A stretch of 64,000 bases of DNA, from assembly GCA_947166385.1 (NCBI GenBank), contig CAMVEB010000015.1:1-64000 (forward strand). The letters run 5' to 3'. This document shows, in pieces, positions 10,303-43,685 of this stretch (position 1 is the stretch's first letter; each line of letters starts with the position of its first letter). The position numbers and the translations under genes are program-made. Source of the stretch: an uncultured Clostridia bacterium. GTDB lineage: Bacteria > Bacillota > Clostridia > Christensenellales > Aristaeellaceae. Under the pieces are notes generated by a model. That model did not search any database. It had not been told where the DNA came from and saw nothing but the letters and a program-made list of their open reading frames with translations.

Positions 10303-10307
10303 AGTGT

Positions 10308-11567: not shown

Positions 11568-11584
11568 GCTTTCCGTCTCCTTTA

Positions 11585-13828: not shown

Positions 13829-13844
13829 GATGTTTGCTCCTTCC

Positions 13845-15221
13845 TTACCATTCCTTTATATCTTTCAGTTCCTTCCGGTAATCTTTATAGCAGAAGATCA
13901 GCGCGGCCATTGCTGACAAAACAGTAGTGACTGTGGCAGAGAAAACAATGCCGTACATTTTGAACAGCCAGTTCATCAGGAATACCAAAGGAATATAGAT
14001 AATGCCCTTTTCCAGCAGGGATACGATAATGGCCTGCCTGGATTTTCCCGCTGCTTGGAGATAGGTCGTGCAGATCTGGTAAAATCCGAAAAAGGGTCCG
14101 ATCACAATGGAGGCGAACAGGCAAACACGGCCAATGCCCAATACGTTCGGATCATCCAGGAAGGCATTCAGCAGCTGATCCCGGAAGATTAGGCACAAAG
14201 CGGACAGCACCGTTCCGGCAACCACGGCAAGTCCCGTGGTTTTTGCCAGAATCTCCGTCAGCCGCTTATGGTTTTTCGCGCTGTAATTAAAGGAAATGGC
14301 GGGCTGCATGCCCATGCAAACGCCCATCACTGTCATAGAAATCATCTGGCCGATGCGCCCGGCTACGCTCTGCCCGGCCACGGCAATGGAGCCGTACTGC
14401 ATCATCAGGTTATTGACGACGGTGCTGGATATGCTGCCCAGCACCGTTGCGCAGCTCATGGGTAGGCCCAGGCTGATCACCGTCAAGACAATCGCCTTTT
14501 CAAATGAAATATCCCTGGGAGATACGGAGTAAATCTTGCCCTTGGTACGCAGGAAGTAAACGTAATAGCACAGACTGACCACGTTGGCCGCCACTGTGGC
14601 GATGGCTGCGCCGGACACGCCCATGTTCAAAACGGAAATCAGCAGCGGGTCCAGAGCAATGTTCAGCACCGTACCCAGCATGTTGCCGATCATGGAATCG
14701 GTGGTGGAGCCGTCAGCCCGGATCAGGGCGGGCACCACGTTGGTCAGCATGATCACCGGCGCGCCGATGGCGATGACGCGCAGGTATTCGGCAGTAAAGC
14801 CCCGGGTTCCATCGTTTGCCCCCAGCAGATTGCAGATGGGCCCCATGAGCGGCAGCACCATGGCGGCAAAAACGACGCCGATCACAATGGCGCCCCACAC
14901 AGCAAAGGCGCTTATTTTTTTGATTTTGTCATATTCTCCCTTGCCAAGCGAAAGGGAGATGGCGGTACAGCCGCCGTTGCCCAGCAGCACGCCCAGGCCG
15001 GATAAAATGGAAAACATGGGCGAGGCCAGCGTGACCGCCGCCACTTTGTTGGCGTCGCCGGTCTGGCCAATAAAGAACACATCCGCCATGTGATAGAGTA
15101 CCATCACCAGCATGATCAGAATGGCGGGGATGCACAGTTTTCTTGCCAGCGTCCAAAAACTGCCGGAACGGAGCATTTCTTCATTGGCAGTCGCGCTGGA
15201 GGATGTCTGGTTGTGCTGCAT
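13845..15221 (-). CDS. MATE-family multidrug/xenobiotic efflux transporter
   Basis: A 458-residue MATE protein with 12 hydrophobic segments arranged as two homologous halves (for example KLCIPAILIMLVMVLYHMAD and ASPMFSILSGLGVLLGNGG in the first). Such antiporters expel aromatic or cationic compounds using Na+ or H+. I placed the start at 15221, 8 bases after GGGAGG; a longer frame to 15269 has no site. It is the first gene of a leftward operon of glycosidases, an unusual place for an efflux pump. A reasonable inference is export of toxic plant aglycones released by the GH1, GH3 and GH43 enzymes. Confidence 0.88.
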   Translation of the reverse strand: MQHNQTSSSATANEEMLRSGSFWTLARKLCIPAILIMLVMVLYHMADVFFIGQTGDANKVAAVTLASPMFSILSGLGVLLGNGGCTAISLSLGKGEYDKIKKISAFAVWGAIVIGVVFAAMVLPLMGPICNLLGANDGTRGFTAEYLRVIAIGAPVIMLTNVVPALIRADGSTTDSMIGNMLGTVLNIALDPLLISVLNMGVSGAAIATVAANVVSLCYYVYFLRTKGKIYSVSPRDISFEKAIVLTVISLGLPMSCATVLGSISSTVVNNLMMQYGSIAVAGQSVAGRIGQMISMTVMGVCMGMQPAISFNYSAKNHKRLTEILAKTTGLAVVAGTVLSALCLIFRDQLLNAFLDDPNVLGIGRVCLFASIVIGPFFGFYQICTTYLQAAGKSRQAIIVSLLEKGIIYIPLVFLMNWLFKMYGIVFSATVTTVLSAMAALIFCYKDYRKELKDIKEW

Positions 15222-15274: not shown

Positions 15275-15339
15275 ATTTTAAATGATCAGTCTTTTCCTGT
15301 CTTTTTGTTTTCCGATGCTTTTTTTCACAAATCCGACAT
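15275..15339 (-). promoter_or_regulatory. YesN-type operator and -10 box driving the leftward MATE-glycosidase operon
   Basis: On the minus strand ATGTCGGAT (15339-15331) and ATCGGAAAAC (15316-15307) carry half-sites exactly 21 bp apart. A -10 hexamer TAAAAT (15280-15275) begins exactly 27 bp after the second half-site ends. There is no convincing -35. The same geometry is found at 15361-15425, 22390-22454 and 28506-28570. Confidence 0.8.
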
Positions 15340-15360
15340 GCGCCGGCATCCAGATGCACA

Positions 15361-15425
15361 ATGTCGGTTTTCTGTCATTTCGAGTCGGAAATCGGGAAGA
15401 AATCGCCGGAAGCGATTGATACAAT
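15361..15425 (+). promoter_or_regulatory. YesN-type operator and -10 box driving the YesL-GH43 operon
   Basis: Half-sites ATGTCGG (15361-15367) and GTCGGAAATC (15384-15393) have their GTCGG cores 21 bp apart. The -10 box TACAAT is at 15420-15425, 27 bp on. The position where a -35 would lie reads AAGAAA. It is divergent from the leftward copy, only 21 bp away, so one regulator could switch both directions. Confidence 0.8.
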
Positions 15426-15457
15426 ACAAACAGCAACCCGAAAAGGAGGAAAGAGAA

Positions 15458-16147
15458 ATGCAGCTTTTTAATCCGGACAGCAAGTTTTCACAGTTTATCT
15501 ATTCACTGCTTGATTATATCAAGCTCGGGTTGGTATTCCTGCTTTTCTCCATTCCAGGCTTTACCGCTGGTGCCGCCGCAGCCGCTGTGATGACGGTGGG
15601 TATGCGGATTGAGCGAAAAGAAGCGCCGACTATCTTCCGTCCCTTTTGGCAGGCCTTCAAGGACAATTTTCGCCAGGGTACTATGCTGACGCTGCTGTTT
15701 ATGCTGGTCGTCGGATTCCTGGCTGCAGACTGGTACATCCTGATGCAGATGGAAGGAACCCCGCTGATCCGCCTGTTGTGCGCAGTAATCTTTGTGCTGG
15801 CATTGCTGACAGCGGCGCTGATGCTCTGGACATTTCCCACGCTGGCCCGGTTTCAACTGACCAACCGGCAAATCATCCATAACGCCGTCATTCATATGCT
15901 GTCCCGCTTCCCCCAGACGCTGTTGGCCCTGGCAGTTGCCGTGGGCGGCTTCATCCTGGCGGCGCTGTTCCCGCAGGTGATGCCTCTCATCACATTCTTT
16001 GTGCCCGCCTTTGTGGTCTGGTATATGTCCAGAACCTGTGTGAAACGTTTCCGCAAATTTGACGGAAGCAAGGAAAACGAAACTGAATGCCAGGAGTTTG
16101 AGCCGAACCGACAGGCAGATTCAGCAGAGCCTCTCCAGCTTAACTGA
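15458..16147 (+). CDS. YesL-like DUF624 membrane protein
   Basis: A 229-residue integral membrane protein of the YesL/DUF624 family, with about five hydrophobic segments (for example LLDYIKLGLVFLLFSIPGFT near residues 16-35 and LLCAVIFVLALLTAALMLW near 108-126). The PTIFRPFWQAFKDNFRQG cytoplasmic segment is typical of the family. These genes accompany YesM/YesN and LplABC-type transporters in Bacillota pectin and plant-glycan loci; their molecular role is not established. The start follows AAGGAGG. The acidic, hydrophilic C-terminal tail (about 200-229) appears extra. First gene of a rightward operon with GH43, a large hydrolase and GH78. Confidence 0.85.
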   Translation: MQLFNPDSKFSQFIYSLLDYIKLGLVFLLFSIPGFTAGAAAAAVMTVGMRIERKEAPTIFRPFWQAFKDNFRQGTMLTLLFMLVVGFLAADWYILMQMEGTPLIRLLCAVIFVLALLTAALMLWTFPTLARFQLTNRQIIHNAVIHMLSRFPQTLLALAVAVGGFILAALFPQVMPLITFFVPAFVVWYMSRTCVKRFRKFDGSKENETECQEFEPNRQADSAEPLQLN

Positions 16148-16166
16148 CAGCGCAGGAGGAAAAATA

Positions 16167-17969
16167 ATGCGGTACTTTTGCAATCCTGTCAATGTGAACT
16201 ATCGGTATCAGTTCAATCTGGATCAACGCCAGGGCGGAAATATGAAAATCTGTCGTGAAGCGGCAGACCCCTCCATGATCTGCTTTCAGGGTCGCTATTA
16301 CATCTTTGCGTCCATGACCCTGGGCGTGTGGGTGTCAGATGACCTGGCGCATTGGCAAAACCATCGGCTTCCCCGGGAACTGCCGCTGTATGATTATGCC
16401 CCTGACGTGCGTGTGATGGGCGAGTGGGTATATTTCTGTGCTTCACGCCGGGATGAAAGCTGCGATCGCTGGCGCACACGGGATATTCTGAACGGGCCGT
16501 ATGAAAAAATACCGGGTAACTTTCCCTTTTGGGATCCCAATCTGTTTATCGATGACAACGGCAGGGTCTATTTCTACTGGGGCTGCTCCAACGCCACCCC
16601 GATCTGGGGCGTGGAATTGGACGCGGAAACGATGCTTCCAAAGGGAGAAAAAAAGGTTCTGATCGAGGGACGTCCTTTTGAAATCGGGTTTGAACGCTCG
16701 GGAGAAGATCACAGCCTTCAGCCTCTCGGACAGGAAGAGGCCGACGCGGAGTTGCGGGCATTCCTGGCTGCCAGAGGCATGCGAGAGGATCAGATTCCGG
16801 ATGACCGCAAGGCGATGATCCGAGGCATGTTCTCCAATGCGCCTTTCATCGAGGGCTCGTGGATGACAAAGCATGAAGACAGGTATTATCTGCAATACGC
16901 ATGCCCGGGCACGGAATATAACATCTATGCCGATGGGGTCTATGTCAGCGACGGTCCCCTGGGTCCGTTCACCCTGGCGAAAAACAATCCCTACTCCTAC
17001 CATCCCGGTGGTTTTCTGCCCGGCGCGGGCCACGGCTCCACCATGCAGGACCGGCAAGGGCAATGGTGGCATACGTCAACGATGCGCATCAGTGTAAACC
17101 ATAATTTTGAGCGCCGTGTCGGCCTGTGGCCTGCGGGTTTCGACACAGATGGGGAGCTCTTCTGCAACCAGCGTTACGGCGACTGGCCTATGGCCACGGA
17201 TGGCGATCCCTGGCGGGACCCGGCCTGGATGCTTCTCAGCGTGGGGAAACCTGTTTCCGCCTCGTCCTGCGTAAAAGGGCATGAGCCGGCAAGAGCGACC
17301 GAAGAAGACGCGCGTTCCTGGTGGCGGGCAGCAACAAACAGCCGTACAGAATGGCTGCAGGTTGATCTTGGAGCGGTATATGATGTTCATGCCATTCAGG
17401 TCAATTTCGCAGATGACGGAATCAGCGTTCCATGCCCTGTTCCGATAATGGAAGGCCAGGCTCGCCATATTGAAGAAAGGGATCTGCAAACCCAATGGCG
17501 GCTGGAGGGCAGCGCGGACGGGGCAAGCTGGTTTGTCATCGAGGACAAGTCTGACGCGCGGACCGACCTTTCCCACGATCTGGTTCTTCGGGAGGACGGC
17601 TTCAAAGCCCGGCTGATCCGCCTGACAAATATCGCCGTGCCCTATGCCCAAAGCCCCTGCTTATCCGGCCTGCGAATATTTGGCAGAGGTCATGGAGCAA
17701 AGCCGGATACTCCATCGTTTACCGCCGCGCGAACCGGCGCATTGGATATGGCTGTGGCCATCCGCAAACAGGAGAACACGCTTGGCTATAACATTCTCTT
17801 TGGTTCTGCCCCCGATAAGCTGTATCACAGCTATATGGTCTTCTCCGCCGGTGAAAAACGCATCGGCGCACTGGTAAAAGGCTGTCATTATTTTGTTCGG
17901 GTCGACGCTTTCAATGAAAGCGGGATAACGGAAGGAAGGTGCATTTCCCTTGAAAAAAACGATCTATGA
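16167..17969 (+). CDS. Glycoside hydrolase family 43 with C-terminal F5/8-type (discoidin) domain
   Basis: A 600-residue cytoplasmic enzyme. The GH43 propeller (about 15-350) shows REAADPSMICFQGRYYIFAS with the catalytic-base Asp, WDPNLFIDDNGRVYFYWG and FIEGSWMTKHEDRYYLQYA with the acid Glu. A discoidin/CBM32-like domain follows (about 370-520: ARSWWRAATNSRTEWLQVDL). The last 70 residues look like fibronectin III. The start is the ATG at 16167 after AGGAGG. Family members release arabinose, xylose or galactose from side chains. The gene overlaps the next one by 20 bp. Confidence 0.87.
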   Translation: MRYFCNPVNVNYRYQFNLDQRQGGNMKICREAADPSMICFQGRYYIFASMTLGVWVSDDLAHWQNHRLPRELPLYDYAPDVRVMGEWVYFCASRRDESCDRWRTRDILNGPYEKIPGNFPFWDPNLFIDDNGRVYFYWGCSNATPIWGVELDAETMLPKGEKKVLIEGRPFEIGFERSGEDHSLQPLGQEEADAELRAFLAARGMREDQIPDDRKAMIRGMFSNAPFIEGSWMTKHEDRYYLQYACPGTEYNIYADGVYVSDGPLGPFTLAKNNPYSYHPGGFLPGAGHGSTMQDRQGQWWHTSTMRISVNHNFERRVGLWPAGFDTDGELFCNQRYGDWPMATDGDPWRDPAWMLLSVGKPVSASSCVKGHEPARATEEDARSWWRAATNSRTEWLQVDLGAVYDVHAIQVNFADDGISVPCPVPIMEGQARHIEERDLQTQWRLEGSADGASWFVIEDKSDARTDLSHDLVLREDGFKARLIRLTNIAVPYAQSPCLSGLRIFGRGHGAKPDTPSFTAARTGALDMAVAIRKQENTLGYNILFGSAPDKLYHSYMVFSAGEKRIGALVKGCHYFVRVDAFNESGITEGRCISLEKNDL

Positions 17970-20070
17970 TCCCAAACAGGATCCGCGTTTCCAGCATCCG
18001 GTTATCGATCAGGATGAATGGAGAGAACGCTATCTGCCCGACGGCGAAACCATTCCCTTCCGGTTCATGCACGGCTATTTTGAGGGAACGGATGTGAAGT
18101 TCGCCTTCTGCTTCCCACCGGCGGAGCGTTATGAAAACCGTTTTCAGCAGTATCTGTCTCCCTTCCCCGGTCCCGATGAAGAGGTAGCCTCTCTGGGGCA
18201 TACCGGCACCGAAGACAGGATCGGCTTTGCCCTCAAATGCGGAGCATATTATGTGGAAACCAACATGGGCTCCCACTCCCAGTTCGGCGGCAACCGGGAT
18301 GACAAGCTGACCTGGCAATCCTCCGCGGCGGCGGCGGAATATTCCCGGGAAAAGGCCATGGAAATCTATGAAACGGCCCAGCGGCCCTATGGCTATGTGT
18401 ACGGCGGCAGCGGCGGCGGCTACAAATCCATGGCCTGCATCGAGAATACCTCTGCCTGGGACGGCGCCGCGCCTTTCGTGATCGGCTCTCCCGTGAGCCT
18501 GCCCAACACCATCACCATGCACGTGCAGGGACAGCGGGTGCTGCGAGATGCTTTTCCCAAAATTCTGGACGCCCTGGACGCGGGCGGCAGCGGCGACCCC
18601 TATAAAGAACTGAATCGGGACGAGGCGGATATGCTGCGGGAGCTGACAAGGATGGGCTTCCCTCCGCTGGCCTGGTATCTGGAGGCCAAGGGCGTCATCG
18701 ATCCCGGCTCCCTGCCGGTGCTGATGCCCGGTGTCAAAAGAATGGATCCCGGCTACTTTACCGATTTCTGGACCAAGCCCGGGTATGCGGGGGCTGACCC
18801 GGAAAGCTCTTCCTCCAAGGATCGCATTTACTTCAAAACCAAAGTTCATTCGGTGCATCTGGCTGATAAGGCGGAAGCCCGCAGTGCGGAAAACGGCCTG
18901 AATGGCGTGGATGACGCCTGGAAAAAGCAGCTGGCCGATGGCAATGGCGCCTATCTCGAACTGGAGGCTCTGCCCCAGGGGGATCATCTGTACCTGGAAG
19001 GTCTTTCGATGATTTTTGAAAGTGGCGAGGCTGCGGGTGCGAACCTGCTCATGGGCAAAATGATGCGTTATTCCGACCGCGACGGTGGCATCGTCACCAT
19101 CGGTTCCGCCTACGGCACCAGCGACGTGGGAGAAACACTGGGGAAAGTGCGGCCTGGGGATGAAATCCTGCTGGATAATTCCGATTATATCGCAGCCCAG
19201 AGCTATTATCGCTACCAGGTGCCGGAGGATCTGTCCTTCCATGCCTGGGATCAGTTCCGCAATGCAGACGGCACACCCAAAACGCCCCAGCGGAAGCCTT
19301 TCCCGGTGCCCTTTACCGGTGTGGGCGTGCGGCAGGATGGCGAAATTCAAGGTAAAGTCATCAACATCCAAGCGCTAATGGACGAAAGCACGTGCCCATG
19401 GTGCGCCGATTGGTGGCGAAAGAAGATCATTGAAGCCAAGGGCAGCGACGCAGATCACCGCACCTACTTTATGGAACGCTGCATGCACGGCGACGTGGCC
19501 GCCATCGGCAACTATATGGTGGTCAACTATGTGGGTGCTCTGCGGCAGGCGCTGATTGACCTGAGCAACTGGGTGGAGAAGGGTATTGAACCCCTGAATC
19601 GTACCGCCTATACCCTGGGCGAGGACGGGCAGATTCATACGGAGCCCGATGTGAGCAAACGGTACGGCATTCAGGCGATTCCCACACTGAAGGCCAACGG
19701 CGAAAAGTGTACCCATGTAAAAGCAAACGAGTGTGTGCGCTTCACGGTGGATGTTGAGGTGCCCGAAAACGCGGGCGACGTGACGGAGATCCTGTTTGCC
19801 CAGCAGGAAAAGCAGCTTGCCGCTAAGGAAACCGAAACCAACGGCGCGGCCAGACTGATGCTGGGAAAAGAAATGTGGGATGGTGCACTGACCTTTACAA
19901 AAGGAGTCCGGGGGCAGGTACACACCGCGCACGCGGAAACCGTCTGTTCTTTTGATAAGCCCGGCACATACTTTGCCACCGTACGCATCGCTACCCAGCG
20001 CAATGGCGATGCCGCAGATCCATTTACCCAGGTGCTGAACCTGGATCGGGCGCGAATCATCGTAGAATAA
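17950..20070 (+). CDS. Large alpha/beta-hydrolase-like protein, possible esterase (unassigned family)
   Basis: A 706-residue protein starting at TTG (17950) with a GGAAGGAAGG site, inside the end of the GH43 gene. Residues 148-160 read YVYGGSGGGYKSM, a GxSxG-type nucleophile elbow at Ser154, following KCGAYYVETNMGSHSQ. This suggests an alpha/beta-hydrolase core like tannase/feruloyl-esterase-type proteins. A second alpha-helical part contains HGDVAAIGNYMVVNYVGALR. The last 110 residues form a beta-sandwich. No signal peptide. I cannot place the catalytic Asp and His with certainty. Context (glycosidases of plant glycosides) suggests removal of an acyl or aromatic ester, but the function is not proven. 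Confidence 0.7.
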   Translation: MKKTIYDPKQDPRFQHPVIDQDEWRERYLPDGETIPFRFMHGYFEGTDVKFAFCFPPAERYENRFQQYLSPFPGPDEEVASLGHTGTEDRIGFALKCGAYYVETNMGSHSQFGGNRDDKLTWQSSAAAAEYSREKAMEIYETAQRPYGYVYGGSGGGYKSMACIENTSAWDGAAPFVIGSPVSLPNTITMHVQGQRVLRDAFPKILDALDAGGSGDPYKELNRDEADMLRELTRMGFPPLAWYLEAKGVIDPGSLPVLMPGVKRMDPGYFTDFWTKPGYAGADPESSSSKDRIYFKTKVHSVHLADKAEARSAENGLNGVDDAWKKQLADGNGAYLELEALPQGDHLYLEGLSMIFESGEAAGANLLMGKMMRYSDRDGGIVTIGSAYGTSDVGETLGKVRPGDEILLDNSDYIAAQSYYRYQVPEDLSFHAWDQFRNADGTPKTPQRKPFPVPFTGVGVRQDGEIQGKVINIQALMDESTCPWCADWWRKKIIEAKGSDADHRTYFMERCMHGDVAAIGNYMVVNYVGALRQALIDLSNWVEKGIEPLNRTAYTLGEDGQIHTEPDVSKRYGIQAIPTLKANGEKCTHVKANECVRFTVDVEVPENAGDVTEILFAQQEKQLAAKETETNGAARLMLGKEMWDGALTFTKGVRGQVHTAHAETVCSFDKPGTYFATVRIATQRNGDAADPFTQVLNLDRARIIVE

Positions 20071-20078
20071 GGATTTTG

Positions 20079-20109
20079 TGAAAGGCTGGTTTTTCCAGTC
20101 TTTCATTTT
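20079..20109 (+). terminator. Intra-operon hairpin after the large hydrolase gene
   Basis: TGAAAGGCTGG and CCAGTCTTTCA pair (one bulge) around a TTTTT loop and are followed by TTTTC. The next gene starts 16 bp later, so this is probably a partial terminator or mRNA-stabilising end that lowers GH78 expression. Confidence 0.6.
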
Positions 20110-20124
20110 CAAAGAGGTAACAGA

Positions 20125-22374
20125 ATGTGGGAATCTGCGCAATGGATCAGGATTCCGCCGGACGAGCTGAAACAGAAGCAAATCTATCACGGTGATCTGG
20201 GCGGACGCTTTGCTTACTTCCGCTGCGAGCAGGCGCTGCAGGAGAAAGCCCATCTGACGGTCTGCCTCACGGCGGTATCCCGTTATCGGCTGTGGGTCAA
20301 TGAACAGCCCGTGCTGTCAGGCCCCTGCAAAGGCGATCTGAATCGGCAGTATTATGAAACGGTGGAGCTGACACCCTATCTGCGGGCGGGGAAAAACGTG
20401 TTTGCCGTACAGGTGCTCTTTAACGATCCCGATGTCGCCCGGGATCAAACCGATGAAAGGGCGGCCATCTACGGCGTAGTTGGCGCTGGCAATTGCCATT
20501 CGCTGGCAATGGAGGGAAGCATATTCGATGGCGATGGGGAAATTATTGGTTCTGTTACCACAGGCCAGGCTGACTGGCGGGTGTGGCTGGACAGCAGCTT
20601 TTATCTGAAGTCCACGCAATGTTCCGTCTTTCTTGGCGCAGTGGAGGAAAACATCGATTTTCGGCTGACACCCAGCGACTGGAAAACCGTCGATTTTGAC
20701 GCATCGGCCTGGCGGCCCGCGATGCCCTATGGACCAGTGACATTCTCAGCTACCTTCCAGAGCCTGGGACTGATCCCCCGGGTGCACGTGATCCCCCGGG
20801 AAATCCCGCTGCTGGAGGAAAGGGAAACGGACTTTACGCGGATCATTTGCAGGGAAAACGATATTGTGCTGGATGCCGGAGCCCATGTGAATGGTTATCC
20901 GCGGTTCCTGTTTGACGGCGAAGCAGGAACAGAAATCACGATCACCTATTTGGAACGTTTCGGGGACGGCATGGATGGGCAGCCCATCGATGATCTGAAC
21001 GGCAGTGTTTCGGGCCGGGCCGATCATATCGTGCTGAACGGCAGCCCCCTACGCTATGAGCCCTTCTGGGTGCGTACCTTCCGTTATATCGTGATCCAGG
21101 GTGGACAGTTGTCGGAGCCGCCGACCTATCGAAAAACAGGGTATCCTTTGGCAGTTGAATCTTCGATCGCATCATCCGCTTCTTGGGTCAATTCACTTTG
21201 GAATATCAGCCTGCGCACGCTGCGAAACTGCATGCTGGAAACCTACATGGACTGCCCGTACTATGAACAATTGCAATTCATCATGGATACGCGGCTGCAA
21301 ATGCTTTTCACCTATGCTGTGAGCAGCGATACGCGTCTGGCAAAGAAAGCGCTGCTGGACTTCCACTGTGGAATGTTGCCGAACGGATTGCTGCCGGGGA
21401 AGACGCCGACAGCTTATCTGCAAGTAATTTCGACGTTCTCCCTTCATTATGCGTTTGCTCTTTGGGAGTATGTGGAGCATACGGGTGATCTGGTTCTAGC
21501 CCGTAAATACCGCTCCGATGTCGACCGAATTCTGGATTGCTTCGATAGCAAGCGGGACAAATCTGGGCTGGTGGGAGCCATTGAACCCTGGGCTTTCATA
21601 GACTGGCAGGAAGACAGGAAAGAAACTGGCGGCGTGCCTCCGGCTTACTTTGAAGGTCCCAGCACCATCATCAATCTGATGTATGCGTATGCCCTGGAAT
21701 GTGGTGCAAAACTATATGAAGCAACGAGGCGCCCCGGTACAGCAAATGAGTACCGGCAGCGGCGGGCAGATATTCTTCAAAGGGTCAAGGACACATGCTT
21801 TGATCCAGATCAAGGCATGGTACGGGAAGGCCCGGAATGTCCTCAGTTCACCCGCCATGCACAGGCCTGGGCTGTGATCAATGGGATGCTGAACGAAAGG
21901 GAAAGTATCCGTGCGCTGAAATCCGCAATAAGCTGTCCTCCCTGCTCCTTTGCCACTTCCTACGAATGGTTTCGCGCGCTTGAAAAAGCAGGTATGGAGG
22001 AACAGCTACGCTGGGATTTGGAGGCCTGGATCAGCCTGAGAGACCGCGGCAGCACCACCTGCCCGGAAGAGCCGCACCATCCCCGCAGCGAGTGCCACGC
22101 CTGGAGCGCGCTTCCGCTGTATACGTTCATACACACGCTGGCCGGGATCCGGCAGGAAAACGGTGTCATCGTAATCCAGCCGCATTTGCTGGGTTTTCCA
22201 GACCTTTCCGGTTCGGCTGCAACGCCTCTGGGAAATGTCCAATTTGTGTACAGGCGGACGGATGACGGCACATGGCAGTATCGGATCAGACTGCCTGAAA
22301 ATGTGCATGGCTTGCTGATCATGCCATCAGATAAGCGGATTCCCTTTTCAGGAGAGCTCCGGTATGCGGAATAA
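20125..22374 (+). CDS. GH78-like alpha-L-rhamnosidase
   Basis: A 749-residue multi-domain protein. N-terminal beta-sandwich domains (about 1-330) contain YRLWVNEQPVLSGPCKGDLN, the jelly-roll typical of bacterial rhamnosidases. The (alpha/alpha)6 barrel begins near residue 350: CMLETYMDCPYYEQLQFIMD, the counterpart of the family motif with general-acid residues, followed by EPWAFIDWQED. The C-terminal beta domain has NGVIVIQPHLLGFPD. No signal peptide, so it acts on imported oligosaccharides or glycosides. It is more divergent from the family consensus than the second GH78 protein in the window, so specificity is uncertain. Last gene of its operon; start after AGAGGT. Confidence 0.8.
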   Translation: MWESAQWIRIPPDELKQKQIYHGDLGGRFAYFRCEQALQEKAHLTVCLTAVSRYRLWVNEQPVLSGPCKGDLNRQYYETVELTPYLRAGKNVFAVQVLFNDPDVARDQTDERAAIYGVVGAGNCHSLAMEGSIFDGDGEIIGSVTTGQADWRVWLDSSFYLKSTQCSVFLGAVEENIDFRLTPSDWKTVDFDASAWRPAMPYGPVTFSATFQSLGLIPRVHVIPREIPLLEERETDFTRIICRENDIVLDAGAHVNGYPRFLFDGEAGTEITITYLERFGDGMDGQPIDDLNGSVSGRADHIVLNGSPLRYEPFWVRTFRYIVIQGGQLSEPPTYRKTGYPLAVESSIASSASWVNSLWNISLRTLRNCMLETYMDCPYYEQLQFIMDTRLQMLFTYAVSSDTRLAKKALLDFHCGMLPNGLLPGKTPTAYLQVISTFSLHYAFALWEYVEHTGDLVLARKYRSDVDRILDCFDSKRDKSGLVGAIEPWAFIDWQEDRKETGGVPPAYFEGPSTIINLMYAYALECGAKLYEATRRPGTANEYRQRRADILQRVKDTCFDPDQGMVREGPECPQFTRHAQAWAVINGMLNERESIRALKSAISCPPCSFATSYEWFRALEKAGMEEQLRWDLEAWISLRDRGSTTCPEEPHHPRSECHAWSALPLYTFIHTLAGIRQENGVIVIQPHLLGFPDLSGSAATPLGNVQFVYRRTDDGTWQYRIRLPENVHGLLIMPSDKRIPFSGELRYAE

Positions 22375-22389
22375 ATTCAGAAAGCCGAC

Positions 22390-22454
22390 GTGTCGGAAAT
22401 GCCGTATTTTTTGTCGGAAATCATAAAGCGCTTATTTCTGTGATTCGCTATCAT
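22390..22454 (+). promoter_or_regulatory. YesN-type operator and -10 box driving the ABC importer operon
   Basis: GTGTCGG (22390-22396) and GTCGGAAATC (22413-22422) have cores 21 bp apart. The -10 box TATCAT is at 22449-22454, 27 bp on; the -35 position reads AAGCGC. Identical geometry to the other three sites. Confidence 0.8.
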
Positions 22455-22513
22455 GGATAGCATCAAGGGAGATATCCCTCCGTTCAGTCCATTCGAGAAA
22501 GGAGATCAAACCC

Positions 22514-24298
22514 ATGTCCATTCGCACAAAGTGGATTGCCTTGATGGTCGCTGTAGTGGTCATGCTGGTCGGCATGCAGGTCTATTACAGCAACATCGGC
22601 GGCACCACCGGCCAGAGTGCATCTCCGGAAACCACTTTTGACTGGTGGATCTATTCCGGCACCTCCTCGGAGTATTATGGCAATTACGCCGAGAACCCTG
22701 CGGTTCAGTACACGCTTCGTCGTGGCTGGGGCCCGGAAGAAAAGGGGATCGCCCTCAATTTCCTGCAGCCCCCGCCTGGCTCCGAAAATGACAACTACAC
22801 CACCATGATCGCCTCCGGCGACCTGCCGGATTTGATCGACGCGGTTATCTGCGATCCGCCCCGCATCATGGTGGAAAAAGGATACGGCATAGAGATCACC
22901 GATTATGTGCTGGCCAACATGCCCAATTATGTGGCGCTGGTGCATTCCAATCCGGTCTATTTCAATAATGCCGTCAGCGTGGATGCCAATGGAAACGAAC
23001 ATTATTACGGCCTGACCAATCTGCAGGACGATTATGACGCGGTGTTCCAGGGCTACATGTACCGCCGGGATTGGATCGTGAAATATGGAACCAACCCGAC
23101 CACCGGCGCTGCTTTCACCGGCGGCTATACTGATCCCGCTGACGCGGACAGCTGGGTGGACGATGTGGTGTTCCCCTCGGGCGGAACCGATCCCAAATAC
23201 ATCTCCGACTGGGAATGGATGTTTGAGATCTTTACCCGCGCGCAGGCCGATCTTGGAATCAAGGATAAATACTGCATGAGCCTGTATTATCCCGGTTTCA
23301 CCTGGTCTGGCGGCCTCCTTTCCTGCTTCGGCGGAGGCGTCAACGTGTGGTATCAGGATGCCGATAACAAGGTGCACTTCGGCGGCAACGAGGAGCCCTT
23401 CAAAACCTACTTGCAATGCATGCACGCTTGGTATGAAAAGGGCTGGCTGGATCACGACTTCAATCAACGCACCTCCGATTCTTTCTTCCAGATCGACTCC
23501 ACCTCCGTGCGCCAGGGCATGATCGGTATGTGGAACGGCCAGCAGAGCGAACTGGGCGGCCGGCTGGATATGCATGATGGCGGATACACCGAGGGCATCT
23601 TTGTGGCCGGCGCAGCCTATCCCATCAACGATATGTATGGCCCGGAAAGCTGCCGGAACGTGCCGCCGAACTGTGTGATGGGCGGCGAGCTGACCGGCGG
23701 CGGCGTGATCATTACGCCTACTGCCAAGGATAAGGACCTGGCCGCCCTGTGCAGTTACCTGGATTACTTCTATTCCGAAGAAGGCGCGCTGATCCGCACC
23801 CTGGGCCTCAGCGCTGAACAGGTGGCGGACTTTTCCGAAAACACCTTCTATGCCAGCAATGGCCTGAGCGATGGCGCTTATTTCATCAACAGTGAAGGCA
23901 AGTACGAAAAGAGCAATGTGCTGGTGACAGACAGCGGTCAATTGAACACCGCAGTAGGATTCAACAAAGCGCCCGGTCTGCTGTTGGTAAAAAACGTGGA
24001 TCTTGGTTATGCCGATACCTATCAGGCTTCTCTGGATCGATGGCTGCTGTATCCCAACACCGGTTTCTTCCAGGGCACCCGCACCACCAACGAGATGACG
24101 CAGGCAGACAGCAAAACATGTGATGACATCCGCGCCAAGGTGCTGGAATACATGACCAAGAACTGTGCCAACTTCATCACCGGTCAGAGCAATTTCGACA
24201 AGGATTGGGACAAGTGGTGCACGGTACTGAAAAAGTATAAGATCGACAGCATCACAGAGATTTATCAGTACTATGTGGACAATTATCCCTTCCGATAA
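22514..24298 (+). CDS. Extracellular solute-binding protein of an LplA-type sugar ABC importer
   Basis: A 594-residue family-1 solute-binding protein of the long LplA type. An N-terminal hydrophobic segment (about 6-22: KWIALMVAVVVMLVGMQVYY) anchors or exports it. There is no lipobox cysteine, so it may stay as an uncleaved membrane anchor. The mature part has the two-lobe signature including WYEKGWLDHDFNQRTSDSF. It would capture oligosaccharides outside the cell and deliver them to the two permeases immediately downstream. No ATPase gene is nearby; such systems borrow a shared MsmX-type ATPase. The start follows AAAGGAG; it is first in the operon behind a YesN-type site. Confidence 0.9.
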   Translation: MSIRTKWIALMVAVVVMLVGMQVYYSNIGGTTGQSASPETTFDWWIYSGTSSEYYGNYAENPAVQYTLRRGWGPEEKGIALNFLQPPPGSENDNYTTMIASGDLPDLIDAVICDPPRIMVEKGYGIEITDYVLANMPNYVALVHSNPVYFNNAVSVDANGNEHYYGLTNLQDDYDAVFQGYMYRRDWIVKYGTNPTTGAAFTGGYTDPADADSWVDDVVFPSGGTDPKYISDWEWMFEIFTRAQADLGIKDKYCMSLYYPGFTWSGGLLSCFGGGVNVWYQDADNKVHFGGNEEPFKTYLQCMHAWYEKGWLDHDFNQRTSDSFFQIDSTSVRQGMIGMWNGQQSELGGRLDMHDGGYTEGIFVAGAAYPINDMYGPESCRNVPPNCVMGGELTGGGVIITPTAKDKDLAALCSYLDYFYSEEGALIRTLGLSAEQVADFSENTFYASNGLSDGAYFINSEGKYEKSNVLVTDSGQLNTAVGFNKAPGLLLVKNVDLGYADTYQASLDRWLLYPNTGFFQGTRTTNEMTQADSKTCDDIRAKVLEYMTKNCANFITGQSNFDKDWDKWCTVLKKYKIDSITEIYQYYVDNYPFR

Positions 24299-24317
24299 GC
24301 GACAGGAGGTGTGAAAC

Positions 24318-25274
24318 ATGGCAAAGCGTAAAAATTTCGATCTGGCTGCCTCCACACGCCGAAGCTGGAAGGCGGAGCTCAAGCGCGACTGGGTGGTCTA
24401 CCTGCTGTTTGTGCCGATCATCGTGTATGAGATCGTTCTGCACTATCTGCCGATGTTCGGCATCGTGATGGCCTTTGAAGATTACAACGTCGCGGACGGC
24501 TACTTCCACAGCCCGTGGGTGGGCCTGAAGCACTTCATTGATCTGTTCAGCGGCGAAGACTTCCTGCAGGCCATCCGCAACACCGTGGTCATCGGCGTGC
24601 TGCGCGCCACCATCGGCTTTGTGGCCCCCATCATCTTCGCGCTGATGCTGAGCCTGATCAATTCAAAGAAATTCAAGCGGACCGCGCAGACCATGTCCTA
24701 CATGCCCAACTTCGTGGCTGCGGTCATCGTCTGCTCCCTGTTCACCCAGTTCCTGGCCAAGGACGGTCCCCTGACGCTGTTCCTGACCAATGTGTTCGGG
24801 GCGGAAAACCAGAACTGGTTTGCCAACGACAAGGCCCCCGTGTTCTGGATCATTTACGTCCTGATGGGCATCTGGCAGGGCATTGGCTGGGGATCCATCA
24901 TGTATGTGGCGGCGATCTCCCAGGTCAGCGGTGATTTGCACGAAGCAGCAGCCCTGGACGGCGCCACCCGCATGCAGCGGCTGTTCAAGATCACCCTTCC
25001 TTCTATCCTGCCCATGATCCTGATGATGTTCGTGATCAACGTGGGAACCGCCCTGGCCGCAGGCTACGACAACATCCTGCTTCTGTACATGCCCAGCACC
25101 TACAAGGTGGCAGACACGGTGTACACCTACACCTATCGTCAGGCCTTCGGCGGCGGCAACAGCAATTACTCGCTTTCCGCGGCTTCCGGCTTGTTCCAGT
25201 CACTTGTTTCCACAATCCTTCTGGTGGGTTCCAACGCCCTGTCGCGTAAAGCCGCCGGAAGCAGCTTGTTCTGA
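24318..25274 (+). CDS. LplB-type ABC sugar permease
   Basis: A 318-residue inner-membrane permease with six hydrophobic segments. The binding-protein-dependent transport motif EAAALDGATRMQRLFKITLP (EAA loop) is near residues 210-230 and docks to the cytoplasmic ATPase. The first segment VYLLFVPIIVYEIVLHYLP is typical of LplB. It lies 19 bp after the binding-protein gene with an AGGAGGTG site. Works as a heterodimer with the next gene. Confidence 0.93.
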   Translation: MAKRKNFDLAASTRRSWKAELKRDWVVYLLFVPIIVYEIVLHYLPMFGIVMAFEDYNVADGYFHSPWVGLKHFIDLFSGEDFLQAIRNTVVIGVLRATIGFVAPIIFALMLSLINSKKFKRTAQTMSYMPNFVAAVIVCSLFTQFLAKDGPLTLFLTNVFGAENQNWFANDKAPVFWIIYVLMGIWQGIGWGSIMYVAAISQVSGDLHEAAALDGATRMQRLFKITLPSILPMILMMFVINVGTALAAGYDNILLLYMPSTYKVADTVYTYTYRQAFGGGNSNYSLSAASGLFQSLVSTILLVGSNALSRKAAGSSLF

Positions 25275-25288
25275 GAGGAGGGATCACC

Positions 25289-26200
25289 ATGGCAAAAAAG
25301 CAAAGGAAAAAGGAAGAATGGGAAAACAACATGGTGGAAACCAAATCCATCGTGGACAGAATTGTGGACGTGATCGTGTATCTTTGCGTAGCGCTGGTAG
25401 CGCTGTGCAGCGTGCTTCCCATGTGGCATGTACTCATGTCCTCCTTCTCGGATGGTAAATCCCTGCTGGCCCATGTGGGCCTGGTTCTATGGCCTGTGGG
25501 TGGCTTCACGCTGGACGGTTACTCCCTGATCTTCCAGAACGCCAGTATCGTGGGAGGCTATATCAACACCATCATCTATACGATCAGCTTCACAGTGATC
25601 GGTTTCCTGCTGTCCGCAGTCACGGGCTATGCCCTGAGCCGGGACACGAAGCTGAAAAAGCCCGTCACCATGGCGCTGATGGTGACCATGCTCTTTGGCG
25701 GCGGCATGGTGCCCACCTACATGATCATCCGGGCCCTGGGCTGGGTGGGTACGCCCTGGGCGCTGGTCATCCCCGGCTGCACCAACAGCATGTACTGCAT
25801 CATGATGATGAACGCTTTCAACTCCATCCCCAAGGAAATGTATGAGGCCAGCCACATCGACGGTGCGGGGCATCTTTCCACCTTGTTTGAAATCACACTG
25901 CCCCAGGCCATGAACATGGGCAGCGTGATCATCCTGAACCTGGCGGTCGGCCAGTGGAACTCCTGGCTGCAGGCTTCCATCTATGTGCCCAACAAAAAGG
26001 CTTTGTGGCCCCTGCAGCTGGTGATCCGCCAGATCACCTCCGAGAACGCCGACTTCCTGAATTCATCCAACCCCAACTACGCCCGTTATCTGATCCAGTT
26101 CGCGGTGATCATCGCGGCCATCGCGCCTATCATTATCGCTTTCCCCTTCTTCCAGGACAAAATGGAGAAGGGCGTTATTCAGGGCGGCGTCAAAGGTTAA
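25289..26200 (+). CDS. LplC/YtcP-type ABC sugar permease
   Basis: A 303-residue six-segment permease, partner of the upstream LplB-like protein. The EAA loop reads EMYEASHIDGAGHLSTLFEITLP near residues 188-210. The C-terminus (KMEKGVIQGGVKG) is characteristic of the LplC/YtcP branch. It starts 14 bp after the previous stop with a GAGAGGAGG site and ends 16 bp before a strong terminator. Confidence 0.93.
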   Translation: MAKKQRKKEEWENNMVETKSIVDRIVDVIVYLCVALVALCSVLPMWHVLMSSFSDGKSLLAHVGLVLWPVGGFTLDGYSLIFQNASIVGGYINTIIYTISFTVIGFLLSAVTGYALSRDTKLKKPVTMALMVTMLFGGGMVPTYMIIRALGWVGTPWALVIPGCTNSMYCIMMMNAFNSIPKEMYEASHIDGAGHLSTLFEITLPQAMNMGSVIILNLAVGQWNSWLQASIYVPNKKALWPLQLVIRQITSENADFLNSSNPNYARYLIQFAVIIAAIAPIIIAFPFFQDKMEKGVIQGGVKG

Positions 26201-26216
26201 TCAAAGGTTGCATTCC

Positions 26217-26247
26217 AACGGCTTGCGCATGGCGCAGGCCGTTTTTA
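26217..26247 (+). terminator. Rho-independent terminator of the ABC importer operon
   Basis: AACGGC-t-TGCGC pairs with GCGCA-g-GCCGTT around an ATG loop, followed by TTTTT (26217-26247). It separates the importer operon from the independent promoter of the sensor kinase gene. Confidence 0.9.
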
Positions 26248-26249
26248 AC

Positions 26250-26278
26250 TATACAAAAATCGTGCTTTCGTGTATAAT
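26250..26278 (+). promoter_or_regulatory. Housekeeping promoter of the YesM/YesN operon
   Basis: The -10 box TATAAT (26273-26278) is perfect; the -35 TATACA (26250-26255) is 17 bp away and matches four of six consensus bases. No YesN-type half-sites precede it, so the two-component system is probably expressed constitutively. Confidence 0.7.
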
Positions 26279-26317
26279 AAAAGCAGTATAACCGTCTTTC
26301 CCGGGAGGGATCGATCG

Positions 26318-27733
26318 ATGAAATCTCTTCAGATGTTCAAGGGTTGGTTCTGGAGCCATGAATTCTTCCGCCGCCTCCGGCCTAGGCTTATGACAATGAT
26401 GCTGGCTCTGGTGCTGCCCGTTTGCCTGATCTGTGTGGTCATCTCCGTCATTTCCATTGTGCAGAGCCGCGAGCTGACCTATCAGATCGGAAATAACGGG
26501 CTGTCGTCGTTTCTGAAAACAGCGGCACTTCAGTTTAAAGCGGACAGCTGGGATCCTCTTACGGATTTTCCTGCCGGAATATCCCCAAAATTCAGACAGT
26601 TCTATACTTATGTGGAAGCGTATAACGGGAAAGTATACGTGTCCCTGAATGGCAGCCAGGCCTTTTTGCTGTCAAATGACGGTTCTTACACCGAATCTCC
26701 GGAGGTGTTTGAAGCGTTAAGGAAAAAACCATATAAATATGAATGGCAGAGCGAGGAGTTGCCTTTTCGGGTGCTGGTTACCTTTCCGTATCATTTTGCC
26801 CTGGTCCACGTGCCATTTGTCCTTTGGATCGGTTTGATTATCTCCATGGCCACGCTGATGCTCAGCCCTTTTTTGTACAAACTGCTCCGCCTTGACATCC
26901 TCCAGCCCATGGACACGCTGCGGAATGCAATCGACACGCTGGGAACAGACAACTCTTACCGGATTCCGCCGCAATCCGGAAAAATCAGCGATGATTTCCT
27001 GATGATCTTTGATGACTTCAACCGGATGGCTGAGGAAATCCAGGTTTCCCATGAGAAAGACATCAAACTCCTGGAAACCGAGATGGACAATCTGCGCTTG
27101 CAGGTGAATCCTCACATGCTGTTGAACTCCTACAATACAATTTATGCCTTGGCGGAAAGCAAAAACTATCCTGTAATCCAGGACTATACGCTGTGTCTGG
27201 TGGATTATTTCCGCTATGTGCTGCGCCGCGGCCAGCAGCTGGTCACCGTTCGACAGGAACTGGAATTTGTGGATAATTTCATCCGCATCCAGCGCATCCG
27301 TTTTCCGGGCCGCTTTTCCTATGTATATCAGGCAGAGGAAGTGTGCCTCCATGCCCAGATTCCACCGCTGCTGATCGAAAACTTTGTGGAAAACGCCATC
27401 AAGTACGCGCTGGAGCCCAGGGAAGCCATCGAAATTGTGGTCTCCGTGCGGAAAGAGCAGAATAAGAACGGAAAGGATGCCCTGCACATTGCCATTACCG
27501 ATACGGGCAGCGGTATCCTGCCGGAAGTACTGGAAAGGCTGAAAGCCCATGAACCCTATATTGACGAAAGTGGAAAAAAGCATATCGGCATCTATAATTG
27601 TCTGCGGCGAATCGAGCTGTTTTATGGGGAAGAAGGAGAGGTGAATTTTTCCAGCGAAAAAGGAAAAGGGACGCAGGTCTACATGGTGGTGCCGTTCCTG
27701 GCATCAGACAGTGAGGAAGAGGAGCGTACATGA
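26318..27733 (+). CDS. YesM-type sensor histidine kinase
   Basis: A 471-residue membrane sensor kinase. The first membrane segment is about 24-46, an extracellular domain of roughly 110 residues follows, and the second segment is about 155-180 (PFVLWIGLIISMATLMLSPF). A HAMP-like linker and the His_kinase domain come next, with the phospho-acceptor motif LQVNPHMLLNSYNTI. The ATP-binding module has LIENFVENAIKYAL and DTGSGI. It would sense an oligosaccharide, directly or through the binding protein, and phosphorylate the next gene product, whose ATG overlaps this stop (ATGA). The start follows GGGAGGG. Its external domain is short compared with many YesM proteins. Confidence 0.92.
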   Translation: MKSLQMFKGWFWSHEFFRRLRPRLMTMMLALVLPVCLICVVISVISIVQSRELTYQIGNNGLSSFLKTAALQFKADSWDPLTDFPAGISPKFRQFYTYVEAYNGKVYVSLNGSQAFLLSNDGSYTESPEVFEALRKKPYKYEWQSEELPFRVLVTFPYHFALVHVPFVLWIGLIISMATLMLSPFLYKLLRLDILQPMDTLRNAIDTLGTDNSYRIPPQSGKISDDFLMIFDDFNRMAEEIQVSHEKDIKLLETEMDNLRLQVNPHMLLNSYNTIYALAESKNYPVIQDYTLCLVDYFRYVLRRGQQLVTVRQELEFVDNFIRIQRIRFPGRFSYVYQAEEVCLHAQIPPLLIENFVENAIKYALEPREAIEIVVSVRKEQNKNGKDALHIAITDTGSGILPEVLERLKAHEPYIDESGKKHIGIYNCLRRIELFYGEEGEVNFSSEKGKGTQVYMVVPFLASDSEEEERT

Positions 27734-28500
27734 ATATCCTGATCGTGGACGATGAACAATTCGCTATCCAGGGAATGCTGGATGGCATCAACTGGGATTT
27801 GCTGGGCTTTGACAAGGTTTTGACAGCTTGCAGCTATGAAGAGGCCGTGAGCATCGTCAAAAAAACCCATGTGGATATCCTTGTCAGCGATATTGAAATG
27901 CCGGGAGAAAGCGGGCTGAAGCTGATCGCCTACATGAATGAGCACAGTGCGAATACGGAATGTATTATTTTGACCTGTCATGACGAATTTGACTATGCTC
28001 AGACAGCTGTGCGTCTGAACTGTATGGAATATGTGCTAAAGCCTGTCCGGTATCAAAAGCTTACCGAGATCCTTCTTCGGGCCAGGGAGAAGGTGAATCA
28101 ACGGCGGCAGAATGAACAGATCCGCCAATACGGGCAGCAGTTTATTGATTCTCTGGCGAAGGAAACGAAAGGAGACGCGGTAAACGCGCTGGAAATGGCT
28201 GTAGAGTACATTGACAGCCACCTGGCGGAGGAGCTTTCCGTTCGGGATTTGGCCACGCTGTGCTATGTGAGCGCGGATCACCTGACCCGACTTTTTAAGA
28301 AAAAATACGGCATGACTGTTTCGGAATACATTCAGGAGAAGCGCATTCGCCTTGCCGGAGAGCTGCTGCAGCGGGAGGATTTGACCATTTCCATGGTCGC
28401 CAACACGGTGGGCTTCGGCAATTATTCCTACTTTACCGAACAATTCAAAAAACACTATGGTATGACGCCCCGGGAGTATCAGAAGCAGATCCGCAAGTAG
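27730..28500 (+). CDS. YesN-type response regulator (REC + AraC DNA-binding domain)
   Basis: A 256-residue regulator. The receiver domain (1-120) has the acidic pocket VDDE at 6-9 and the phospho-acceptor Asp54 in LVSDIEMPG. The linker is short, and an AraC-type double helix-turn-helix (about 155-256) includes LATLCYVSADHLTRLFKKKYG and the closing YFTEQFKKHYGMTPREYQ. Phosphorylation by the upstream kinase should allow binding to 21-bp-spaced direct repeats. Four such sites exist in this locus, and I infer that this protein recognises them. It is shorter than B. subtilis YesN because the linker is reduced. Confidence 0.93.
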   Translation: MNILIVDDEQFAIQGMLDGINWDLLGFDKVLTACSYEEAVSIVKKTHVDILVSDIEMPGESGLKLIAYMNEHSANTECIILTCHDEFDYAQTAVRLNCMEYVLKPVRYQKLTEILLRAREKVNQRRQNEQIRQYGQQFIDSLAKETKGDAVNALEMAVEYIDSHLAEELSVRDLATLCYVSADHLTRLFKKKYGMTVSEYIQEKRIRLAGELLQREDLTISMVANTVGFGNYSYFTEQFKKHYGMTPREYQKQIRK

Positions 28501-28505
28501 CATTC

Positions 28506-28570
28506 ATGTCGGATCAGCAGGATTTTTCATCGGATTTCATACAGCATTTTTCCTCCGTCAATGGCATAAT
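28506..28570 (+). promoter_or_regulatory. YesN-type operator and -10 box driving the secreted-protein/glycosidase operon
   Basis: ATGTCGG (28506-28512) and ATCGGATTTC (28529-28538) have cores 21 bp apart. The -10 box CATAAT is at 28565-28570, 27 bp on. No recognisable -35. It lies right after the response-regulator stop codon and precedes a long operon that reaches 42550. Confidence 0.78.
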
Positions 28571-29709: not shown

Positions 29710-29750
29710 TCATTTACAAATCATCAGAGGCTGCCTCTGATCAACTCAGT

Positions 29751-29780
29751 GCCGCCGCCCTTATTGGACGGCGGCCTTTT
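29751..29780 (+). terminator. Internal terminator after the secreted-protein gene
   Basis: GCCGCCG (29751-29757) pairs with CGGCGGC (29769-29775), followed by CTTTT. A second perfect hairpin (ATCAGAGGC-t-GCCTCTGAT, 29723-29741) lies just before. Together they probably stop part of the transcription, setting a high ratio of secreted protein to downstream enzymes. Confidence 0.75.
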
Positions 29781-29800
29781 CAAAAAAGGAGATTCCTTCC

Positions 29801-30865: not shown

Positions 30866-30879
30866 GGGGTGTTGCCGCA

Positions 30880-32427: not shown

Positions 32428-32440
32428 AGGAGAAACGGCT

Positions 32441-43679: not shown

Positions 43680-43685
43680 TTATTA

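What the first reader, a model, noticed from the sequence alone, without database searches (positions are those of the whole stretch)
15275..28570. One regulator motif, four promoters: a 21-bp-spaced GTCGG repeat with fixed -10 distance
Seen directly: four sites (15339-15275 minus, 15361-15425, 22390-22454, 28506-28570) each have two RTCGG cores exactly 21 bp apart. Each has a -10-like hexamer (TAAAAT, TACAAT, TATCAT, CATAAT) starting exactly 27 bp after the second half-site, and no good -35. Every site spans 65 bp. They precede the four transcription units of the glycan locus and not the yesMN operon. Known: AraC-type response regulators bind direct repeats two helical turns apart and activate promoters lacking a -35. 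Inference: the YesN-type protein at 27730-28500 binds them and the locus is one regulon of about 20 genes.
Basis: partly seen in the sequence, partly recalled or inferred. Interest (0 to 1): 0.8.

Follow-up and report, generated by a model that had tools for sequence, protein, structure and literature searches.

The report
Conserved sugar-regulator DNA switch at four promoters
Four promoters of a plant-glycan gene cluster in a gut bacterium carry the same two-part DNA tag, kept in relatives that carry the same regulator gene, so one signalling protein very probably switches on about twenty sugar-uptake and sugar-cutting genes together; it is a clear new example of a known kind of control.

Summary
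Four sites (15337-15275 minus, 15363-15425, 22392-22454, 28508-28570) share GTCGG, RTCGGA 21 bp later, and a -10 hexamer 31 nt after the second RTCGG. A matrix built only from other species' loci ranks these four 1-4 in the window (59-42 bits; next 3.2; 53 control loci at most 10.1). Nothing else in the own genome comes within one mismatch. In related loci the motif precedes the transporter in 22 of 23 testable cases, the D unit in 24 of 26, yesM in 0 of 27, with regulators down to 53% identity. Two paralogous transporter loci with one-component AraC regulators lack it. A conserved A(G) lies where a -35 would be. Best explanation: the response regulator YesN (27730-28500) binds as a tandem dimer and activates four -35-less promoters, a local regulon of about 20 genes. 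The isomerase/transketolase/kinase unit (43.6-48.5 kb) has no site and its own LacI-type gene. Binding and activation were not tested. The architecture is known from Bacteroides HTCS and Caldicellulosiruptor systems: new member of a known kind.

The parts
15275..15337 (-). Site A: half-site 1 15337-15329, half-site 2 15316-15308, -10 TAAAAT 15280-15275; drives the MATE-led unit
   Evidence: matrix 42.2 bits; site upstream of MATE in 8 of 11 testable loci
15363..15425 (+). Site B: half-site 1 15363-15371, half-site 2 15384-15392, -10 TACAAT 15420-15425; drives the DUF624-led unit
22392..22454 (+). Site C: half-site 1 22392-22400, half-site 2 22413-22421, -10 TATCAT 22449-22454; drives the ABC transporter
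   Evidence: matrix 51.2 bits; 22 of 23 testable loci
28508..28570 (+). Site D: half-site 1 28508-28516, half-site 2 28529-28537, extended -10 TGGCATAAT ending 28570; drives the seven-gene D unit
   Evidence: matrix 59.1 bits; 24 of 26 testable loci
27730..28500 (+). YesN-type response regulator (256 aa: receiver plus two-HTH AraC domain), proposed binder
   Evidence: Response_reg, HTH_AraC, HTH_18; relatives
26318..27733 (+). YesM-type sensor histidine kinase
   Evidence: His_kinase, HATPase_c; ATG 26318 behind GGGAGG
26250..26278 (+). motif-free promoter of yesMN: TATACA-N17-TATAAT, behind a terminator-like hairpin at 26229-26242
   Evidence: terminator-like matches in 15000-29000 are not above the shuffles (13 against 13.7)
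7111..15221 (-). Unit A: MATE exporter, GH3, GH1, GH43, GDSL esterase, SDR (6 genes)
   Evidence: Pfam; MATE start ATG 15221; operon extent inferred
15458..22374 (+). Unit B: DUF624 (YesL/MusI-like) membrane protein, GH43, 706-aa protein without Pfam match, GH78-like (4 genes)
   Evidence: start ATG 15458
22514..26200 (+). Unit C: probable solute-binding protein (594 aa, no Pfam or NCBIfam match) and two LplB/LplC-type permeases (3 genes)
   Evidence: permeases; solute-binding role inferred from position, size and N-terminus
28645..42550 (+). Unit D: secreted protein of unknown family, GH43, apiosidase-like, GH3, GH78, GH2, GH2-esterase (7 genes)
   Evidence: start ATG 28645
42622..48515 (.). 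Neighbour outside the regulon: LacI-type gene (minus), then isomerase-like, split transketolase and FGGY kinase genes (plus); no motif
   Evidence: window scan

Best explanation
The four sites are operators of the YesN-type response regulator encoded at 27730-28500. Each is a tandem pair of roughly 17-bp AraC-type half-sites. Box A is RTCGGATTT; a second, weaker box lies 12-16 bp further on (A/T-rich in the first half-site, A(A/C)AG in the second). The pair repeats after 21 bp, two helical turns, so two monomers lie on one DNA face. The second box of the promoter-proximal half-site sits where a -35 hexamer would be, before a -10 held at a fixed distance. Inferred mechanism: the YesM kinase senses a plant glycan, phosphorylates YesN, and the YesN dimer occupies both half-sites and recruits RNA polymerase in place of a -35 element. 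This activates four units (about 20 genes): MATE exporter plus hydrolases, DUF624 plus hydrolases, ABC transporter, and the apiosidase/rhamnosidase unit. YesMN is expressed from a motif-free promoter, so it has no autoregulatory site of this kind. Shown: sites, geometry, conservation, co-occurrence with the regulator, absence elsewhere. Inferred: binding, phosphorylation dependence, activation, ligand.
For: Matrix from other species ranks the four sites 1-4, 42-59 bits, against 3.2 for the next window hit, 7.4 at most in 60 simulated windows and 10.1 at most in 53 control loci of 939 kb (7 own-genome kinase loci, 46 distant YesN loci). Site upstream of the transporter in 22 of 23, D unit 24 of 26, MATE 8 of 11, DUF624 4 of 7, yesM 0 of 27 testable loci. 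Regulators with matrix sites range from 99% to 53% identity, in records named Lachnospiraceae, Blautia, Acetatifactor, Ruminococcaceae. L079 (51%) has 22-bp spacing yet still 31 nt from second core to -10. -10 (5 of 6 or better) at offset 57/58 in 46 of 53 sites; shuffles mean 0.8, highest 5 in 500 runs. Matches to TTGACA at 16-18 bp average 2.0 of 6, random 2.4. Both TCGG cores and the bases A26, A35, G36 are invariant in 26 sites of seven genomes. Two paralogous SBP-LplBC loci, beside one-component AraC-type regulators (no receiver domain), score at most 4.0. No other site within one mismatch in the 94.6% complete genome. SBP and B3 orthologs occur in the same 7 of 120 genomes, own included, as the regulator. 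Tandem operators with 21-bp mean spacing are reported for AraC-type HTCS (PMC3878776, passages).
Against: No binding, transcript or phosphorylation data. Seven of 53 sites have no good -10 at 57/58, and two -10 positions were among the 15 used to pick most of these sites, so that test is not fully independent. G36 is lost in 8 of 48 training sites (A35 is kept in 48), so the -35-position box is weaker outside the genus. Five of 32 regulator-bearing loci gave no matrix site: L079 (22-bp variant) and L069, L073, L077, L082, which hold neither transporter nor D1; L069 and L082 hold a MATE homolog whose upstream region lacks the site. L072 has no site directly before its SBP, where D1 comes first. 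L075's D1 site was below the matrix threshold. 31 of the 32 loci are unequal witnesses: several are near-identical or trained the matrix. No genome was found that keeps the genes but lacks the regulator, so regulator loss was not tested.
Confidence: 0.9

Rival explanations
1. The sites are bound by another regulator (an unlinked AraC- or LacI-type protein), and YesN is only a neighbour.
For: Binding was not tested; the cluster also holds a LacI-type gene.
Against: Direct repeats 21 bp apart fit a two-HTH AraC domain rather than a palindromic LacI operator (general knowledge). The motif accompanies the YesN ortholog in 27 of 32 loci and is missing in two paralogous transporter loci with one-component AraC-type regulators. 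The unit beside the LacI gene has no site.
Confidence: 0.06
2. YesN binds the sites but represses, with the sugar signal releasing it.
For: The promoter-proximal half-site reaches the -35 position, where a bound protein could also block polymerase.
Against: Both half-sites lie upstream of the -10, the -35 is no better than chance and the phase to the -10 is fixed, as at activator-dependent promoters. In C. bescii, AraC-type two-component sites upstream of mapped promoters (three of five systems) were read as activator sites (PMC8579813, passages).
Confidence: 0.03
3. The similarity is chance, or a by-product of promoter duplication without function.
For: The sites were picked by eye after the fact, and the bare dyad occurs 117 times in the genome.
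Against: Independent matrix; retention at orthologous promoters over large divergence while intervening bases changed; the divergent A and B sites stay intact although the distance between their first cores varies from 15 to 28 bp.
Confidence: 0.01

Closest known systems
Bacteroides AraC-type hybrid two-component (HTCS) operators, Ravcheev et al. 2013, PMC3878776 (abstract passage and passages seen)
   Same: Receiver plus AraC-type DNA-binding domain; predicted operators (16 of 36 HTCS) are direct repeats, mean spacing 21 bp; local glycan-utilisation regulons.
   Different: HTCS fuse kinase and regulator and drive SusC/SusD; here kinase and regulator are separate proteins, the target is an LplABC-type importer, and the distance to the -10 is fixed.
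AraC-type two-component systems of Caldicellulosiruptor bescii, PMC8579813 (passages seen)
   Same: Sensor kinase plus AraC-type regulator beside an ABC sugar importer; tandem-repeat sites with large spacers upstream of promoters, read as activator sites.
   Different: Other organism, targets and presumably site sequence; their motif figures are supplementary and I did not see them.
XydS/XydR of Clostridium cellulolyticum, PMC3572039 (passages seen)
   Same: AraC-type response regulator that binds upstream of plant-cell-wall genes; the authors report no regulation of xydRS by XydR.
   Different: XydR is 532 aa and its exact operator was not resolved; here a 256-aa regulator with a well-defined candidate operator.
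AraC at araBAD, I1-I2 (recalled, from no call)
   Same: Two direct half-sites about 21 bp apart, the promoter-proximal one touching the -35.
   Different: AraC is a one-component arabinose sensor that also loops and represses; nothing here points to looping.
YesN of Streptococcus pneumoniae, PMC11034029 (passages seen)
   Same: Same family name.
   Different: The authors found no clear repeat motif, only a conserved AATTC and possible parts of a direct repeat.

Membership tests
YesN-type (AraC-family) response regulator | Receiver domain with acidic pocket, phospho-acceptor Asp and Lys | tested here: met
   Response_reg E 7.1e-23; D7, D8, D54, K104 invariant in 16 aligned proteins
YesN-type (AraC-family) response regulator | C-terminal AraC domain with two HTH units | tested here: met
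   HTH_AraC (2 stretches) and HTH_18
YesN-type (AraC-family) response regulator | Adjacent YesM-type kinase | tested here: met
   His_kinase and HATPase_c at 26270-27733; YesM homolog in 28 of 32 ortholog loci
YesN-type (AraC-family) response regulator | Phosphotransfer from kinase to regulator | not testable with these tools
   needs biochemistry
Tandem direct-repeat AraC-type operator | Two direct half-sites about 21 bp apart | tested here: met
   four window sites and orthologous sites; one 22-bp variant
Tandem direct-repeat AraC-type operator | Specific binding by the cognate regulator | not testable with these tools
   only co-occurrence shown
Activator-dependent promoter lacking a -35 | -10 at fixed distance from the operator | tested here: met
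   46 of 53 at offset 57/58; shuffles mean 0.8; site choice used two -10 positions
Activator-dependent promoter lacking a -35 | -35 hexamer not above chance | tested here: met
   mean 2.0 of 6 against random 2.4; exception site A, AAGACA, 9 of 12 in all
Activator-dependent promoter lacking a -35 | Transcription depends on the regulator | not testable with these tools
   no expression data
Autoregulated two-component operon | The same operator upstream of yesM | tested here: not met
   0 of 27 testable loci
LacI-type operator | Inverted repeat (palindrome) | tested here: not met
   the cores are direct repeats
General YesN rule (21-22 bp repeats beside distant YesN loci) | Excess of 21/22-bp repeats over other spacings | tested here: inconclusive
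   11 and 13 upstream regions against 0-10 at the other spacings and about 3 in shuffles, but many hits are orthologous Treponema regions

The most novel reading that the evidence does not exclude
YesN-type response regulators in general read a 21-22 bp tandem operator placed at one fixed distance from a -35-less promoter, so that the operator of each uncharacterised YesMN-LplABC sugar system can be read off by this geometry and paired with its recognition helices, giving a protein-DNA code for glycan sensing in Firmicutes.
Probability: 0.35. Interest if true: 0.6.

Novelty: new member of a known kind. Interest (0 to 1): 0.42.

Why it matters
YesMN-type sensor systems sit beside many ABC glycan importers of gut and soil Firmicutes, and in the passages I read one YesN (pneumococcus) had no clear motif and one relative (XydR) no resolved operator. 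This locus gives a sharply defined candidate operator, with half-site sequence, spacing, distance to the -10 and a list of conserved targets, that can be tested with one protein and four short DNA fragments. It ties a MATE exporter, an importer and apiosidase/rhamnosidase enzymes into one programme. It would also give an inducible promoter for rumen Clostridia. It does not change the understanding of how AraC-type regulators work.

Tried and rejected
Bare-dyad search: too common to be informative; only the whole architecture discriminates.

Spacing enrichment in distant YesN loci as a test of a general rule: a first version counted overlapping windows and looked strong (39 and 59 at spacings 21 and 22); a second timed out; counted per upstream region the excess is modest and partly orthologous Treponema repeats. 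Left as inconclusive.

Search for genomes that keep the transporter or the 706-aa protein but lack the regulator: none; the same 7 of 120 genomes hold all three. The paralogous loci L149 and L150 served as the nearest negative control.

Regulator-bearing loci without a matrix site were inspected: L069 and L082 hold a MATE homolog without site, L079 a 22-bp variant.

Literature: searches for YesN with direct repeats, an AraC-type response regulator motif with ABC transporter and regulon, and apiose with response regulators showed no paper on this regulon. They cover only the held open-access library; I read listings and passages, no whole paper.
Full report
What is there. The window (54% GC) lies in a 4.33-Mb genome of 96 contigs, 94.6% complete. 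Around 7-48 kb it carries a plant-glycan locus. Unit A (minus, 15221-7111): MATE exporter, GH3, GH1, GH43, GDSL esterase, SDR. Unit B (plus, 15458-22374): DUF624 membrane protein, GH43, a 706-aa protein without Pfam match, a GH78-like protein. Unit C (22514-26200): a probable solute-binding protein and two permeases. Then yesM-yesN (26318-28500). Unit D (28645-42550): a secreted protein of unknown family, GH43, apiosidase-like, GH3, GH78, GH2, GH2-esterase. Beyond it lie a LacI-type gene and isomerase-like, split transketolase and FGGY kinase genes.

The sites. Each of the four units A-D is preceded by the same element, and yesM is not. In register, with the G of the first GTCGG as offset 0: RTCGGATTT at 0-8, A/T-rich at 14-16, RTCGGA at 21-26, A(A/C)AG at 33-36, a -10 hexamer at 57-62. 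The extended half-site RTCGGATTT is supported by 48 sites from other genomes. Predicted transcript starts, about 7 nt after the -10 (inference), leave leaders of roughly 26-68 nt before the start codons at 15221, 15458, 22514 and 28645 (starts).

More than chance. The bare dyad is common (117 in the genome, reversed control 49; 9 in the window). The whole architecture is not: at up to three mismatches 49 places match (reversed control 39), and only the four sites have 0-1. That pattern was made from the sites, so I also built a 63-column matrix from 48 sites in other genomes, leaving out the window and its 98-99% kin. It ranks the four window sites first to fourth (59.1, 51.2, 47.7, 42.2 bits); the next hit has 3.2, sixty simulated windows reach 7.4, and 53 control loci (7 around other YesM-type kinases of the same genome, 46 around distant YesN-type regulators; 939 kb) reach 10.1.

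Footprint across relatives. The regulator has orthologs in 7 of 120 genomes examined, own included. Stretches around six of the relatives' copies, scanned, show the element before the orthologous units, 26 sites in all with the window. A scan of species genomes returned 79 loci, 32 with a regulator 51% or more identical. Of these 32, 27 hold at least one matrix site. By promoter, k of n testable: transporter 22 of 23, D unit 24 of 26, MATE 8 of 11, DUF624 4 of 7, yesM 0 of 27. These loci are not all independent: L057 and L058 come from one genome, several are near-identical, and many trained the matrix. The window is independent of it.

Promoter geometry. In 53 sites a -10 with 5 of 6 matches lies at offset 57 or 58 in 46; shuffling the downstream stretch gives 0.8 on average and 5 at most (500 runs). 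Two -10 positions were among the fifteen used to collect most sites, which inflates this somewhat. Matches to TTGACA at 16-18 bp average 2.0 of 6, below a uniform random 2.4; site A alone has a passable AAGACA. The -35 position is occupied by the second box of the promoter-proximal half-site: A35 and G36 are invariant in the 26 genus-level sites and A35 in 48 of 48, G36 in 40 of 48 training sites. Nearly all D promoters within the genus also show TGG before CATAAT, an extended -10. The divergent A and B sites lie back to back, with 15-28 bp between first cores in different genomes, so they probably act independently.

Who binds. The regulator at 27730 has a receiver and a two-HTH AraC domain; D7, D8, D54 and K104 are invariant in 16 aligned relatives. 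Its kinase homolog is present in 28 of 32 loci. Two paralogous loci with the same kind of transporter (SBP 36-38% and permeases about 50% identical) and shared enzymes, one in the own genome, one in a relative, stand beside AraC-type regulators without a receiver domain, and they lack the motif (best 4.0). So the motif goes with this regulator rather than with the transporter. L083, whose regulator is 35% identical, has no site either.

How it works, most likely. YesM phosphorylates YesN in response to a plant glycan; YesN-P occupies the two half-sites side by side and recruits polymerase to a promoter without -35. About 20 genes respond together, nearly all regulated sites being within 14 kb. 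YesMN is made from its own promoter (TATACA-N17-TATAAT). The enzymes of units A, B and D have no evident signal peptide by eye, so the picture is uptake followed by internal cleavage, with the MATE pump perhaps exporting aglycones (speculation). The later sugar steps are left to the LacI-type gene (inference from position).

Compared with what is known. Direct repeats with a mean spacing of 21 bp were predicted for Bacteroides AraC-type HTCS (PMC3878776, passages). Tandem sites upstream of promoters were reported for three of five AraC-type two-component systems of C. bescii (PMC8579813, passages). XydRS is reported not to be regulated by XydR (PMC3572039, passages). For pneumococcal YesN no clear repeat was found (PMC11034029, passages). 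The mechanism works like AraC at araBAD (recalled). The present case is a new regulon with a new half-site sequence in a known architecture.

Verdict. Observation confirmed; interpretation supported as far as sequence can take it; binding and activation remain to be shown.

Noticed in passing
window 43626-48515, with 42622-43641: Isomerase-like (sulfoquinovose-isomerase relative, below cut-off), split transketolase and FGGY kinase genes beside a LacI-type gene; with the apiosidase-like enzyme this resembles the apiose-apulose pathway (recalled, not tested). The isomerase had no PDB sequence match.
   Followed up: partly
window 28645-29709: D1, first gene of unit D: secreted protein of a family without Pfam, NCBIfam or PDB match, kept under the operator even where it is only 32-38% identical; the L079 homolog begins like a lipoprotein.
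   Followed up: partly
window 17950-20070: 706-aa protein with no Pfam match but 83-84% identity in relatives: a probable enzyme family of unknown activity.
   Followed up: no
window 721-4658: DUF5906 (primase-like) and MobA/VirD2 relaxase genes next to unit A: probably a mobilisable element flanking the glycan locus.
   Followed up: no
window about 5100-6400: AT-rich stretch without an obvious gene that repeats phrases such as 'ctacatggcgaaaatc...ttttggaaacac' several times.
   Followed up: no
L149 (G009:C47) and L150 (G000:C23): Paralogous SBP-LplBC loci sharing GH3, GH43 or the 706-aa family but beside one-component AraC-type regulators and without the motif.
   Followed up: yes
L079:4150-4225: Variant operator with 22-bp spacing while the second half-site keeps 31 nt to the -10, suggesting that the promoter-proximal half-site sets the geometry.
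   Followed up: partly
Treponema loci such as L099, L105, L113, L117, minus strand near 4000-4130: 22-bp-spaced repeats of the form AAATTCCTA upstream of a gene near a distant YesN-type regulator; could be that system's operator.
   Followed up: no
L133 (G035) and L066: The solute-binding protein of G035 has one in-frame TAA and the L066 MATE and SBP matches are split, possibly assembly errors or decay.
   Followed up: no
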